DNA from: Verrucomicrobiales bacterium
Lineage (GTDB): Bacteria > Verrucomicrobiota > Verrucomicrobiia > Verrucomicrobiales > V1-33
Direction: 5' to 3'
NCBI GenBank assembly: GCA_018003315.1
Contig: JAGNEJ010000023.1
Location: forward strand, 1 to 57,905
DNA: 57,905 nucleotides
Shown here: positions 53,362 through 57,862 of the stretch, piece after piece
Layout: each line of letters begins with the position of its first letter
Numbering within the stretch: position 1 is the first letter of the stretch
Made by a program: the position numbers and the translations under genes
The notes under the pieces: model-generated
Databases searched by the model: none
Seen by the model: only the letters and a program-made list of their open reading frames with translations
What the model was told of the DNA's origin: nothing

Positions 53362-54423
53362 TCAATCATCCCGCTCGCGGCATCGCGGACGGTCATCGGG
53401 CTCTTGTCCGATCACCGCGGCGGTCCGGGCCATGAAGGCGAGATTTTCGGGTGCAGTATCCGGAGTGATTTCGCAGCCGCCGGAAATGATGCAGCGCCCA
53501 TCGGCTTGGCGGAAATCCCGCAGGATCGTCTCCCCCAAGGTTTCCGGCCTGCCGTTTTGGATCACAGACACCGGATCGGCCTTGCCGGAAAAAACCTGCT
53601 TCGGGGAGAGTCGGCCGAGGAAGGGCTCGAACGAAGGCACGAGATGGTCCACGTCGATGATGTCCGCGCCGGTGGCGATCATGTCCGGCAGTATGGCCGT
53701 GGTGTTGCCGCAAATGTGCAGTTTGGCCTTGGCACCGAGCGCATGGATGTGGTCCACGAGCGCCTTTTCCCGCTGGAATGCAAACTCGCGAAAGAGCCGC
53801 GGTCCGATTTGCGAGGCGAATGCGTCGCCGATGCCGATGCAGTCTGCTCCCGCCTTGATCTGGAGTTCCGCAAACGTCATCGCCGCCTCAGTAATCATGT
53901 CCATCACCCTGGCGACCTTTTCCGGTTCGTCCATCAGGTCGTAGGCAGCTTCGGTTAGTCCGCGCAGGTCGGCGTATTCGGCAACCGGACCCTCCACCCA
54001 GCCGACGACAAAAAAGCGGTCTCCCGCCAGGCGACGAAACGTGGCGATTTCTTCGAGTCGGTTGGCAGTGCGCCGGTGGGCGGTGACGTTGTAGGGCTTG
54101 AGGGCAAGCACTTCGGCGATGTCCGCGAAGTGTCCCTGGTCGAGCGGCAGACCGTCCTCGGGATACTCCACCTTGATGCCGAACGCCTCGGCTTCGGCAT
54201 AGGGATCGGACATGACCGTGACCCAGTCAGCACCAAAGTCCGCGGCGCACTGGATCATGGCGCGGCATTTGTCAGCAGGATTCAGGCAGAAATCGCGGTA
54301 GTTCACGCCGGCATGGCGGGCGGCGAAACGCATGACGATGGGGTGAAACGGCGGACGGTCCACGGGCCGCCCCTCCAGAAAGTTCAAGGTGCGTTCCCGT
54401 CCTGTCAGGGAGAGTGTGCTCAT
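53362..54423 (-). CDS. URO-D/MtaA-like methyltransferase
   Basis: 353 residues of the uroporphyrinogen decarboxylase superfamily. The zinc motif AKLHICGNTTAILPDM (His-x-Cys) and a later Cys in CIISGGCEITPDTAPENL are those of MtaA/MtbA/CmuA-like corrinoid or thiol methyltransferases, and not of heme-pathway HemE. ERTLNFLEGRPVDRPPFHP at the N-terminus is also typical. No corrinoid protein or partner methyltransferase is adjacent. It diverges from the UGA-containing thioredoxin gene. Confidence 0.85.
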   Translation of the reverse strand: MSTLSLTGRERTLNFLEGRPVDRPPFHPIVMRFAARHAGVNYRDFCLNPADKCRAMIQCAADFGADWVTVMSDPYAEAEAFGIKVEYPEDGLPLDQGHFADIAEVLALKPYNVTAHRRTANRLEEIATFRRLAGDRFFVVGWVEGPVAEYADLRGLTEAAYDLMDEPEKVARVMDMITEAAMTFAELQIKAGADCIGIGDAFASQIGPRLFREFAFQREKALVDHIHALGAKAKLHICGNTTAILPDMIATGADIIDVDHLVPSFEPFLGRLSPKQVFSGKADPVSVIQNGRPETLGETILRDFRQADGRCIISGGCEITPDTAPENLAFMARTAAVIGQEPDDRPRCRERDD

Positions 54424-54626: not shown

Positions 54627-55373
54627 ATGAAAAAATCCCTGTGCTTTCTGCTAGCCTCTTGTCTGGGCATCAGCGCCTCCCTGGCCGAGGTCCGGAAATG
54701 GACCAGCGCCGATGATCCAACCAAGACATTTGATGGCGAATTCGTCGAAGCCAAGGGGGACATGGTCACCATCAAAAGGAAGAGCGGCAAACCCCAGACG
54801 TTCCCTGCAGCCAAGCTTTCCAAGGAAGACCAGGACTACATCGCCCAGCAGGCAGCCAGCAAAGCCCAGGAAGCCGCCACGAAAGCGGCTGCCGACAAAG
54901 TCAAGGAATCGCCCATGGCCAAAGCGCTGGAGAAAAAGCTGCAGAAACTCGACGGCAAAAAATTTGTGAAGTTCGACCTGCTGGCGGAAAAGGCGCCTGA
55001 ATACTACCTGCTCTACTGGGGAGCCTCGTGGTGAGGCCCCTGCAATGCTACAGCGCCACAGTTGGTGGCGCTTTACGATAACAAACTGGCCGCCGCGAAG
55101 AACGTCGAACTCGTCCACATCAGTTGTGACCAGGACGAGGCCGGCATGAAAAAATTCATGGGCGGGCACAATCTCAAATGCCCGGTGATTGATGCCGCCA
55201 CGGCTGACAAAATCAAAGTGCTGAAGGAGCTATCTCCACGCGGAATTCCAAACTACAAGCTGGTGGATGCTTCCGGCAAACTCCTGGCAGAGGGGTCGGA
55301 TGCGAAGCACAAGGCTGAGGAATTTGCCGCTGCTGCGGCGGCGGGAGGCGGGGATGCCGAGGCCAAAAATTAA
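54627..55373 (+). CDS. SHD1-thioredoxin-like protein with in-frame UGA (putative Sec136)
   Basis: 248 residues if the TGA at 55032-55034 is read through. The signal peptide is MKKSLCFLLASCLGISASLA, so the protein is exported. Residues ~21-72 form an SHD1-type domain (VRKWTSADDPTKTFDGEF), followed by a charged Ala/Lys linker. The thioredoxin-like domain runs from ~120: YYLLYWGASW, the UGA, then GPCNATAPQLVALYDNKLA in the same frame. The UGA thus replaces the first Cys of a WCGPC redox motif. The fold continues with VELVHISCDQDE and the cis-Pro segment LSPRGIPNYKLVDASGKLL. A perfect 8-bp hairpin follows 17 bases after the UGA. A disulfide/selenosulfide oxidoreductase of the periplasm is the natural reading; the alternative is a nonsense-mutated gene. 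Confidence 0.85.
55052..55072 (+). promoter_or_regulatory. Candidate SECIS hairpin in the thioredoxin-like gene
   Basis: AGCGCCAC-AGTTG-GTGGCGCT, an 8-bp perfect stem, with two more pairs after a one-base mismatch. The loop begins 26 bases after the UGA and its second base is G, matching the bacterial SECIS consensus. Confidence 0.7.
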
Positions 55374-55428: not shown

Positions 55429-57717
55429 TCACTGCGCCGGGCCAACCCAAACGGCATCGGCATGGACATGGCCTTCGGTGCCCTGGCAGTGGATGGTCAC
55501 GGCGCAGACCTTGCCGGAAACCAGGGAAAATTTCCCGATGCTGGTGAATCCGTTTTCCAACGTCGGAGCCGCCTTCTGGTTCAGCCGGACCGTCTGGGTT
55601 TCCGCTCCGGTTTCGATTTCACAGGGCACGCTCTGCGCACGGTTTTGGTGCGGCTGCCAGGCGATGCGGATTTCATATCTTCCGTGCTTTGGCACAGCGA
55701 ATTCGAACCGCGCCGAGGCCTCACTGCCTCCGGACGCGTAATGATAGCCGCTGCCCACGTAACCCGGCAGGCCGGTCCCATGCGTCCACTTTCCGGTGAA
55801 TTTGGCCTGTGAGTCATCGACCACCAGCAGGCCTCCCAATTTCAGTGGGTCCAGCCGGGCGGCACGGTTCGTGCCCTCCGCCGCCGGGGTTGAAAGCGGG
55901 GAAACCGCGGGAAGCACCGCCGCCGCCCCCACTTTTTCACGCCGTGCGCCTCCGGGCAGGCGCAGCAATTCCTTGAGCGCCTCCAGGTGGCTTTGATAGA
56001 CTCCCCGCGGCGAGGCGTTTTCACTGACGCACAGATACGCAGCCTTGCCCACCACCTCGCCCATCATGCCGCAGGTGCGCATGACCCGCACCGTTCCCAG
56101 CGCTTCGTGGGTGACGCTCAGGCAGCGACCGGCCATGAACAGGTTGTCCACGTTGCGCGAGTAGAAACAGCGGTAGGGCACCGGATACCCTTCCTTCCGG
56201 TCAACTCCCTTTCCAAAAACCGCCTTGGAAATGAACGGATCGTCAGGAAATTTTTTGGCATACTGCTGTTTTGGATAGTGGAGGTCGATGTCCCAGGTGG
56301 TCGGCACGGTGGCATCGGGAAATGCTTTCTGCTCGACGATGTCCTTTTCGGTCAGGACCACGTCTCCCTGGAGCAGGCGCGATTCCCGCGTGCCGCCGAC
56401 GGAGGCGACCCATTCGAGGCGCGCCCTGGCATATTTTTCGGCTTCGGGGCCGTTTTTCATCGCGTTGAAGGCCCCAAAGACCGCCCGCAAATTCCAGTCC
56501 CGCGTCCATTCCAGGTCGCGCAGCGGATGTCTGGAAAAGCCGCTTTCCCAAAACCACTCGCCCTTGTGATAGGATTCCGTACCGTCCGCTTTTTTGGTTA
56601 GTGGAAAATCACCCGGCTCCAGCGGGAGTGCCCAATCCGTTTTCGGAAACGGCTGCGGTTCCGCCGCCTCCTTCCAATACCACATGTTGCTCATGCCCAG
56701 GTGGCCGGTTTCCTGCAGGGTGAATTCTGCGCCGGCCAGGTCTCCCAACGTTCCGTGGCCCGTGCAGTCGGCAAAGAGGCGTCCGCGAAATTCCCTGGTC
56801 TTGCCGGAAAGGGTGTCGAGTGCGGTGACGCTGCGGATGAGCCGGGCTGTTCCCGCCTGCATGGAAGCGGCGATGGCATGGTGGTTGAGAAACAGGTCGA
56901 TGTTTCGTTCCGCGCGGATGATTTGCTCCTTGCGGGCGTCGCCAAAATCCTCTGCCAGTCCCGGAGAATTCGGCGCATGATCCGCAAATTCCTCCACGAT
57001 TTCACCCAGCCGCGGAAACAGTCCGCGCCGGGTGCCGCCCTGCGCCCAGACGCGGATTTCACTGCTGCCGTTGCCGCCCAGGACGGAACGGTTCTGAATC
57101 AGCGCAACCTTGATTCCCTGCCGCGCCGCGGAAATGGCCGCCCCCATGCCGGCGTAGCCGCCGCCGACGACCACGAGGTCGTATTCCCGCGCATGCTCCG
57201 CCGCGATGCTCTCGCGCAGCCGTTTCCGTTCACCAGCGGCAAATTTTTCGGGGTCCACGCCCGGGGTTTTGCTGAGCACCACCGCATCACAGCGTCCGTT
57301 GAAGCCGCTCAGGTCATGCAGGGCCACCATGGCTCTGCCAGCGGGAAGTTCCGCGCGGCCCGCCGCCTGCCAGTGCCAGTCGGCTCCCTGCGTGCCCAGG
57401 GTTTGTTCCAGCGGCTTTCCGTTGATGATGAGCTGGAACTTGCCGGGAGTTCCCGGTGCCTGCCAGCGGGCCACCCAGTCCTTGGTGCGCACCCACACCT
57501 GGTAGGTTCCGGGTGCGGCAATGTCCACTGCGGTGGTGGCATCCGCCACGGGACGGCCCAGTCCGTGGGCCATGAGATAGGGCGAGCCCATGATTTCAAT
57601 GAACTGGGTGTCCAGCGTCCATCCGCCGTGGCGGGCAAACGCTTCCGCTTCCAGAAAAATGCTTTCTTGGGCGGCGAGAGACCATGGAATCACCAGCAGG
57701 GCGAACAGCTTCAGCAT
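55429..57717 (-). CDS. Secreted FAD-dependent oxidoreductase
   Basis: 762 residues with signal peptide MLKLFALLVIPWSLAAQESI (start 57717). Residues ~25-160 resemble a carbohydrate-binding-type beta domain (IFLEAEAFARHGGWTLD). The FAD domain starts near 180: YDLVVVGGGYAGMGAAISAA (GxGxxG), then LGGNGSSEIRVWAQGG, and RLFADCTGHGTLGDLAGAEF. The middle and C-terminal parts (LFMAGRCLSVTHEALGTVRV) match the FAD_oxidored/xanthan-lyase-like group common in PVC bacteria. The last ~120 residues form a second beta-sandwich (golvesin-like, SAYHYASGGSEAS region). Substrate unknown; likely a polysaccharide or sugar derivative outside the cytoplasm. Confidence 0.88.
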   Translation of the reverse strand: MLKLFALLVIPWSLAAQESIFLEAEAFARHGGWTLDTQFIEIMGSPYLMAHGLGRPVADATTAVDIAAPGTYQVWVRTKDWVARWQAPGTPGKFQLIINGKPLEQTLGTQGADWHWQAAGRAELPAGRAMVALHDLSGFNGRCDAVVLSKTPGVDPEKFAAGERKRLRESIAAEHAREYDLVVVGGGYAGMGAAISAARQGIKVALIQNRSVLGGNGSSEIRVWAQGGTRRGLFPRLGEIVEEFADHAPNSPGLAEDFGDARKEQIIRAERNIDLFLNHHAIAASMQAGTARLIRSVTALDTLSGKTREFRGRLFADCTGHGTLGDLAGAEFTLQETGHLGMSNMWYWKEAAEPQPFPKTDWALPLEPGDFPLTKKADGTESYHKGEWFWESGFSRHPLRDLEWTRDWNLRAVFGAFNAMKNGPEAEKYARARLEWVASVGGTRESRLLQGDVVLTEKDIVEQKAFPDATVPTTWDIDLHYPKQQYAKKFPDDPFISKAVFGKGVDRKEGYPVPYRCFYSRNVDNLFMAGRCLSVTHEALGTVRVMRTCGMMGEVVGKAAYLCVSENASPRGVYQSHLEALKELLRLPGGARREKVGAAAVLPAVSPLSTPAAEGTNRAARLDPLKLGGLLVVDDSQAKFTGKWTHGTGLPGYVGSGYHYASGGSEASARFEFAVPKHGRYEIRIAWQPHQNRAQSVPCEIETGAETQTVRLNQKAAPTLENGFTSIGKFSLVSGKVCAVTIHCQGTEGHVHADAVWVGPAQ

Positions 57718-57783
57718 GGCACATGCATTCACGACGTGGCGGATGCTGTCCACCGCCGCACTGGCGTAGCGGGGGCAGGCGTA

Positions 57784-57862
57784 TTGCCTCAGCAAAAAAT
57801 GACACCGGAGGGTGGCGTTAGGTAGGGGATCGTTGCCTCACATTCGATGACACCGGAGGTGG
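57784..57862 (+). repeat. Degenerate tandem repeat at the window's right edge
   Basis: TTGCCTCA (57784 and 57833) and ATGACACCGGAGG (57799 and 57847) are repeated with a period of 48-49 bases. The second ATG opens a frame (MTPEVVVISLHIALRFGAV) that runs off the window, which may be the start of a gene; too short to judge. Confidence 0.4.

What the first reader, a model, noticed from the sequence alone, without database searches (positions are those of the whole stretch)
54627..55373. Likely selenoprotein: exported SHD1-thioredoxin with UGA in the WCGPC position
The reading frame is open from the signal peptide to the stop, except for one TGA, at codon 136. The codon sits exactly where thioredoxins have the first active-site Cys: Trp before it, Gly-Pro-Cys after it. 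Downstream coding sequence is well preserved, including the cis-Pro region. A perfect 8-bp hairpin with loop AGTTG begins 17 bases after the UGA, within SECIS spacing, with G as the second loop base. A random nonsense mutation would rarely hit this codon and be followed by such a hairpin. Fusion to an SHD1 domain is also unusual for a Sec-containing thioredoxin.
Basis: partly seen in the sequence, partly recalled or inferred. Interest (0 to 1): 0.9.

Follow-up and report, generated by a model that had tools for sequence, protein, structure and literature searches.

The report
Selenocysteine thioredoxin with SHD1 domain
A bacterium of the order Verrucomicrobiales very probably reads one UGA 'stop' codon as selenocysteine in the active site of an exported thioredoxin-like enzyme, and dozens of related, mostly marine bacteria do the same in the same gene, so this is a real selenoprotein and not a broken gene.

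Summary
ORF 54627-55373 is open except for one TGA (55032-55034) at the first Cys of a thioredoxin WCGPC motif, followed by an 8-bp hairpin with loop AGTTG. The genome encodes selA, selB, selD (itself with an in-frame TGA) and tRNA-Sec(UCA). It also holds a second TGA-containing exported thioredoxin, with its SHD1-like stretch at the other end and the same loop at the same spacing.

Of 74 homologues from the order, 58 have TGA at exactly this codon and 16 have Cys; none has TAA or TAG. The TGA forms keep a covarying stem with an invariant loop start AG. At the loop, Leu is always TTR (51/51) against 14% elsewhere in the same genes, and Gln is always CAG (58/58) against 52%. 48 of 49 genomes with extracted TGA forms have selA, against 45 of the other 240. 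A blind DNA-pattern scan of 84,980 species genomes gave 74 matches, all in thioredoxin-like frames and almost all in Verrucomicrobiales, including five cultured species.

Selenium incorporation is inferred, not shown. Sec thioredoxin-like (UxxC) proteins are a known class. The SHD1 fusion, in two domain orders, and its spread through this order are what looks new.

The parts
54627..55373 (+). Selenoprotein gene: exported SHD1-thioredoxin, 248 codons with UGA at codon 136
   Evidence: Open frame except for one TGA; homologues with TGA or Cys at that codon
54627..54686 (+). Predicted N-terminal signal peptide MKKSLCFLLASCLGISASLA (by inspection; no signal-peptide program run)
   Evidence: Sequence; low-confidence N-terminus (residues 1-18) in the model
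54681..54854 (+). SHD1-like domain (residues 19-76)
   Evidence: PF03983 22.5 bits, E 1e-4, just under the cut-off; 11 of 24 family members match, best E 8.6e-8
54999..55280 (+). Thioredoxin-like domain (residues 125-218; Thioredoxin_8, ResA/tryparedoxin-like)
   Evidence: PF13905 E 7.2e-14; solved relatives ResA and tryparedoxin; model pLDDT above 90 here
55032..55034 (+). UGA codon read as selenocysteine (U136), first residue of the UGPC motif
   Evidence: TGA at this aligned codon in 58 of 74 homologues, TGC/TGT in 16, no TAA/TAG
55041..55043 (+). Resolving Cys139 of the UGPC motif
   Evidence: Invariant column in alignment A2
55052..55072 (+). Bacterial SECIS hairpin: stem 55052-55059 / 55065-55072, loop AGTTG 55060-55064
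   Evidence: Covariation, codon bias at the loop, covariance model finds only this and the C142 gene with strong scores in the genome
55248..55250 (+). cis-Pro208 of the thioredoxin fold
   Evidence: Invariant column; lies just before strand 209-214 in the model

Best explanation
The gene encodes an exported thioredoxin-fold oxidoreductase with an N-terminal SHD1-like domain, whose nucleophilic active-site residue is selenocysteine (WUGPC). SelD makes selenophosphate, SelA converts seryl-tRNA-Sec to selenocysteinyl-tRNA-Sec, and SelB binds the in-frame SECIS hairpin 17 nt after the UGA and delivers the tRNA, so that the ribosome inserts Sec instead of stopping (machinery genes shown; their action here inferred from the known E. 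coli mechanism). In the cell envelope the Sec attacks disulfides, sulfenic acids or peroxides of partners, and Cys139 resolves the intermediate, as in ResA/TlpA- and tryparedoxin-like proteins (inferred). The SHD1-like domain probably anchors or targets the enzyme (inference, weak). When selenium is scarce, termination at the UGA would leave only the SHD1 half.
For: Complete Sec machinery in the same genome: selB, tRNA-Sec with anticodon UCA, 52.2 bits against a gathering score of 47, selA, selD that itself carries an in-frame UGA. TGA at the Cys codon in 58 of 74 homologues, Cys in the rest, never TAA/TAG. A second in-genome UGA thioredoxin with the same loop and spacing. Stem covariation. 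Loop codon bias: Leu TTR 51/51 against 13.7%, Gln CAG 58/58 against 52%. Co-occurrence with selA: 48 of 49 genomes with extracted UGA forms against 45 of 240 others. Pattern scan: 74 of 74 matches in thioredoxin-like frames. Downstream coding constraint, L069 against L076: 25 synonymous and 3 nonsynonymous codon differences after the UGA. TGA is an ordinary stop for six other ORFs in the window and for selB.
Against: No selenium, protein or RNA data. The hairpin in this one sequence is not more stable than shuffles. One genome with a UGA form (G249) lacks a selA match, perhaps because the assembly is incomplete. The genomes are related, so the co-occurrence P value overstates independence. The function beyond thiol-disulfide redox chemistry, and the role of SHD1, rest on homology alone.
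Confidence: 0.96

Rival explanations
1. Pseudogene or sequencing error: a chance nonsense mutation in a Cys thioredoxin.
For: One base change from TGC/TGT to TGA would produce the observed frame; the window comes from an assembly of 155 contigs.
Against: Same TGA in 57 other homologues, nearly all from other assemblies, with intact and constrained downstream frames; blind pattern scan finds it in cultured isolates too.
Confidence: 0.01
2. UGA is reassigned genome-wide to another amino acid, or is read through by near-cognate decoding, and not decoded as Sec.
For: UGA is clearly translated in this family.
Against: TGA ends selB and six other ORFs in the window. The aligned residue is Cys in Sec-less forms. 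UGA forms track selA and carry a SECIS-like hairpin that most Cys forms lack.
Confidence: 0.02
3. The UGA is used mainly as a regulated stop: the SHD1 half is the main product, and the hairpin serves translational control, with Sec read-through a minor outcome.
For: Bacterial Sec insertion is generally inefficient (established knowledge); the upstream product would be an exported SHD1 protein.
Against: Downstream sequence is as constrained as upstream, and Sec-to-Cys conversions keep the full-length protein.
Confidence: 0.05

Closest known systems
Thiol-disulfide isomerase-like selenoprotein (PF13905/cd02966, UxxC; Sargasso Sea 2005, PMC1088965; listed in PMC9312934 and PMC13188914) and 'Trx-like 1' (COG0526, UxxC; GOS, PMC2398784)
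   Same: Thioredoxin-like fold, best Pfam match PF13905, Sec in the first position of UxxC, bacterial SECIS directly downstream, marine occurrence; the window protein may fall within this broad class
Sec-containing thioredoxin (PF00085, UxxC; experimentally verified, listed in PMC13188914)
   Same: UxxC active site with Sec in the first position
   Different: Window protein is exported, fused to an SHD1-like domain, and closer to ResA/tryparedoxin than to TrxA
ResA / TlpA / tryparedoxin (Cys proteins)
   Same: Closest solved structures by sequence and fold (4nmu, 1ewx, 3s9f, 1st9)
   Different: Sec instead of the first Cys; N-terminal SHD1-like domain
SHD1 (SLA1 homology domain 1, PF03983)
   Same: 11 of 24 family members match the Pfam model; members share a core such as RTWTSADG
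   Different: Bacterial exported context; binding partner unknown; window copy scores just under the cut-off

Membership tests
Bacterial selenoproteins | In-frame UGA with conserved coding sequence on both sides | tested here: met
Bacterial selenoproteins | Cys at the UGA position in homologues | tested here: met
   TGC/TGT in 16 of 74 homologues, including the closest relatives
Bacterial selenoproteins | SECIS hairpin shortly downstream with a guanosine in a small apical loop | tested here: met
   Hairpin 55052-55072, loop AGTTG; covariation and codon bias; bSECISearch itself was not available
Bacterial selenoproteins | selA, selB, selD and tRNA-Sec in the genome | tested here: met
   all over curated cut-offs
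Bacterial selenoproteins | Selenium incorporated into the protein | not testable with these tools
   Needs 75Se labelling or mass spectrometry
Thioredoxin-like UxxC selenoproteins (PF13905) | Thioredoxin-like fold with UxxC and cis-Pro | tested here: met
   PF13905 52.3 bits against a cut-off of 27; model with U136 at the start of helix 137-154 and Pro208 before strand 209-214
Thioredoxin-like UxxC selenoproteins (PF13905) | Sequence similarity to the published representative (MAK15852.1 / MGB1650493.1) | not testable with these tools
SHD1 domain proteins (PF03983) | Match to the Pfam model over its gathering score | tested here: inconclusive
   22.5 bits against 23.7 in the window protein; 11 of 24 family members match at E <= 0.001, best 8.6e-8
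Curated NCBIfam selenoprotein models | Score over the model cut-off | tested here: not met
   No NCBIfam model reached its cut-off for the window protein or the C142 paralogue

The most novel reading that the evidence does not exclude
SHD1-fused exported thioredoxins, in both domain orders, form a previously undescribed selenoprotein subfamily that is spread across Verrucomicrobiales and, with SelD, helps to maintain the Sec-decoding trait there (the one over-cut-off formate dehydrogenase alpha match in this genome has no in-frame stop); SHD1 would be an envelope targeting or substrate-binding module for Sec redox enzymes.
Probability: 0.5. Interest if true: 0.55.

Novelty: new variant of a known kind. 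Interest (0 to 1): 0.48.

Why it matters
It places Sec-dependent envelope redox chemistry in a large, mainly marine set of bacteria and in named cultured strains where it can be tested with selenium labelling. By established experience, standard annotation would report these genes as truncated or broken. The near-invariant SECIS loop across dozens of species, together with sister genes that have Cys and keep a fossil stem, makes a natural series for studying what SelB needs and how Sec is lost. The SHD1 fusion gives a handle on the unknown role of SHD1-like domains in exported proteins of these bacteria.

Tried and rejected
Single-sequence folding energy as evidence for the SECIS: z = -0.79, not discriminating. 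Rfam gathering search on the paralogue locus: no match. NCBIfam: no model above cut-off. Formate dehydrogenase alpha as another selenoprotein in the genome: the over-cut-off match has no stop inside. Covariance-model scan of the genome for more SECIS elements of this kind: only the two thioredoxins score well; weak hits (E 0.03 and above) were not followed. Literature searches for Verrucomicrobia selenoproteins, SHD1-thioredoxin and Rubritalea with selenocysteine found no report of this family. The quick tree of 72 rows has few resolved forks, so the number of Sec gains and losses is not firm.

Full report
What is there. The frame 54627-55373 (+) runs from ATG to TAA with a single internal TGA at 55032-55034, codon 136, in the context LLYWGASW-*-GPCNATAPQL. 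Read through, the protein begins with a signal-peptide-like stretch (by inspection), has an SHD1-like domain (PF03983, 22.5 bits, just below the cut-off of 23.7) and a thioredoxin-like domain (PF13905, E 7.2e-14). The upstream neighbour (53362-54423, -) is divergent and the downstream neighbour (55429-57795, -) convergent, so the gene is probably transcribed alone.

Machinery. The genome (5.09 Mb, 155 contigs, 96% complete) has selB over the family cut-off, a tRNA-Sec with anticodon UCA (52.2 bits over a gathering score of 47; called tRNA-SeC by ARAGORN), selA (497 bits) and selD, which itself carries an in-frame TGA in the loop CAG-U-ASK.

A second case in the same genome. A search with the read-through protein found another TGA-containing exported thioredoxin on contig C142...VVVLDYWGRS-U-GPCIAALPQLAALDRK..., with an SHD1-like stretch at its C-terminus (36% identity over 61 residues to the window SHD1 region, BLASTP E 1e-7 for that pair; not over the Pfam threshold). 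Its hairpin has the same loop AGTTG at the same distance (28 nt from the U of UGA), and two stem pairs differ on both sides from the window hairpin (read). A covariance model of the family element finds only these two with strong scores in the genome (E 1.7e-11 and 6.2e-8; the next is 0.03). Both sequences are in the model's training set, so what this scan adds is the absence of further strong hits.

Homologues. In 289 genomes of the same order, the best matches mostly carry exactly one TGA. Of 74 homologous regions extracted (the window's and the C142 one included), 58 have TGA at exactly the aligned codon, 14 TGC and 2 TGT; none has TAA or TAG. The three closest relatives, of the same family, have Cys (WGASWCGPC) and keep a fossil of the stem (CTCCGC-ATCTG-GCGGAG) in which the loop G has become T. 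Two further Cys forms (L068, L081) and L079 sit inside the Sec clade on a quick tree, which suggests Sec-to-Cys conversions, although many forks are unresolved.

RNA-level constraint. In the 58 TGA forms, the two bases that open the loop are always AG. The Gln codon there is CAG in 58 of 58, against 153 of 295 elsewhere in the same genes; where the next residue is Leu it is TTA/TTG in 51 of 51, against 13.7% elsewhere. Cys forms with Leu there mostly use CTN. The 6-bp stem is paired in 89.9% of cells, four of six pairs show changes on both sides, and 15 cells carry such changes against 2.7 in shuffles, none of 500 shuffles reaching it. Shuffles ignore relatedness, so this is supportive and not a probability. 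The folding energy of the window hairpin alone is not unusual.

Co-occurrence. selA is found in 93 of 289 genomes. Of 49 genomes with an extracted TGA form, 48 have selA; of the other 240, 45 do (Fisher P about 2e-27; species are not independent). The exception, G249, is an assembly of 290 contigs. The other 240 include some whose TGA forms were listed but not extracted, which makes the contrast conservative.

Blind scan. The DNA pattern TGA-SSN-CCN-TGY plus the SECIS arm and loop was searched in 84,980 species genomes: 70 stretches with 74 matches, all 74 in open thioredoxin-like frames. One locus (L136) is titled Planctomycetota and one only 'Bacterium'; the others carry Verrucomicrobia titles. 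Several are cultured isolates: Rubritalea marina, Rubritalea profundi, Roseibacillus persicicus, Roseibacillus ishigakijimensis, Persicirhabdus sediminis.

Against rivals. TGA ends selB and six other ORFs in the window, so the code is not reassigned. Downstream of the TGA, codon differences between close Sec homologues are mainly synonymous (25 to 3, L069 against L076; 9 to 3, L057 against L058), so the 3' part is translated. A nonsense mutation or a sequencing error cannot explain the same TGA in dozens of assemblies.

How it probably works. The predicted structure (mean pLDDT 88.6) has U136 just before helix 137-154 and Pro208 just before strand 209-214, the usual thioredoxin active-site layout. 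Closest solved relatives are ResA and tryparedoxin. From the known chemistry of these families, Sec136 is the attacking residue and Cys139 the resolving one. The substrate, the reductant in the envelope and the role of SHD1 are not known. That Sec is inserted is inferred from sequence evidence, at high confidence.

Comparison with what is known. Sec-containing thioredoxin (UxxC) is experimentally established (listed in PMC13188914), and thioredoxin-like UxxC families are predicted in large numbers from the sea (PMC1088965, PMC2398784). A thiol-disulfide isomerase-like selenoprotein with Pfam PF13905 and UxxC is listed in PMC9312934 and, as cd02966, in PMC13188914; the window protein may belong to that broad class, which could not be tested because those sequences are not held. 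The inventory table of PMC13188914 (119 families and subfamilies) lists no SHD1 fusion, and no NCBIfam model reaches its cut-off. I therefore call it a new variant of a known kind: same mechanism and class, with a new domain architecture (SHD1 at either end) and a well-defined taxonomic home.

Noticed in passing
G000:C142:143906-144280 (-), L050: Second TGA-containing exported thioredoxin (WGRS-U-GPC) in the same genome, with a C-terminal SHD1-like stretch and the same SECIS loop; L147, L172 and L197 show the same layout.
   Followed up: yes
L017 (G000:C124): selD of this genome itself carries an in-frame TGA (CAG-U-ASK), with a possible hairpin with loop GGUUC downstream (read by eye, not folded).
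   Followed up: partly
L021, L022, L023: Cys homologues from the same family keep the SECIS stem but have lost the loop G (AUCUG): apparent fossil SECIS after Sec-to-Cys conversion, although these genomes (G009-G011) still have selA.
   Followed up: partly
L161 (three matches), L192 and L200 (two each): Neighbouring runs of two or three UGA-containing thioredoxin paralogues in Roseibacillus, Akkermansiaceae and Rubritalea MAGs.
   Followed up: no
L136 2136-3272 (-): Planctomycetota MAG with a ResA-like UPPC protein with an in-frame TGA, no SHD1 match and a long C-terminal extension, carrying the same SECIS loop.
   Followed up: partly
G000:C69:12370-14370 (-), L204: Formate dehydrogenase alpha match in this genome has no in-frame stop, so the commonest bacterial selenoprotein does not appear as a UGA form at this locus.
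   Followed up: partly
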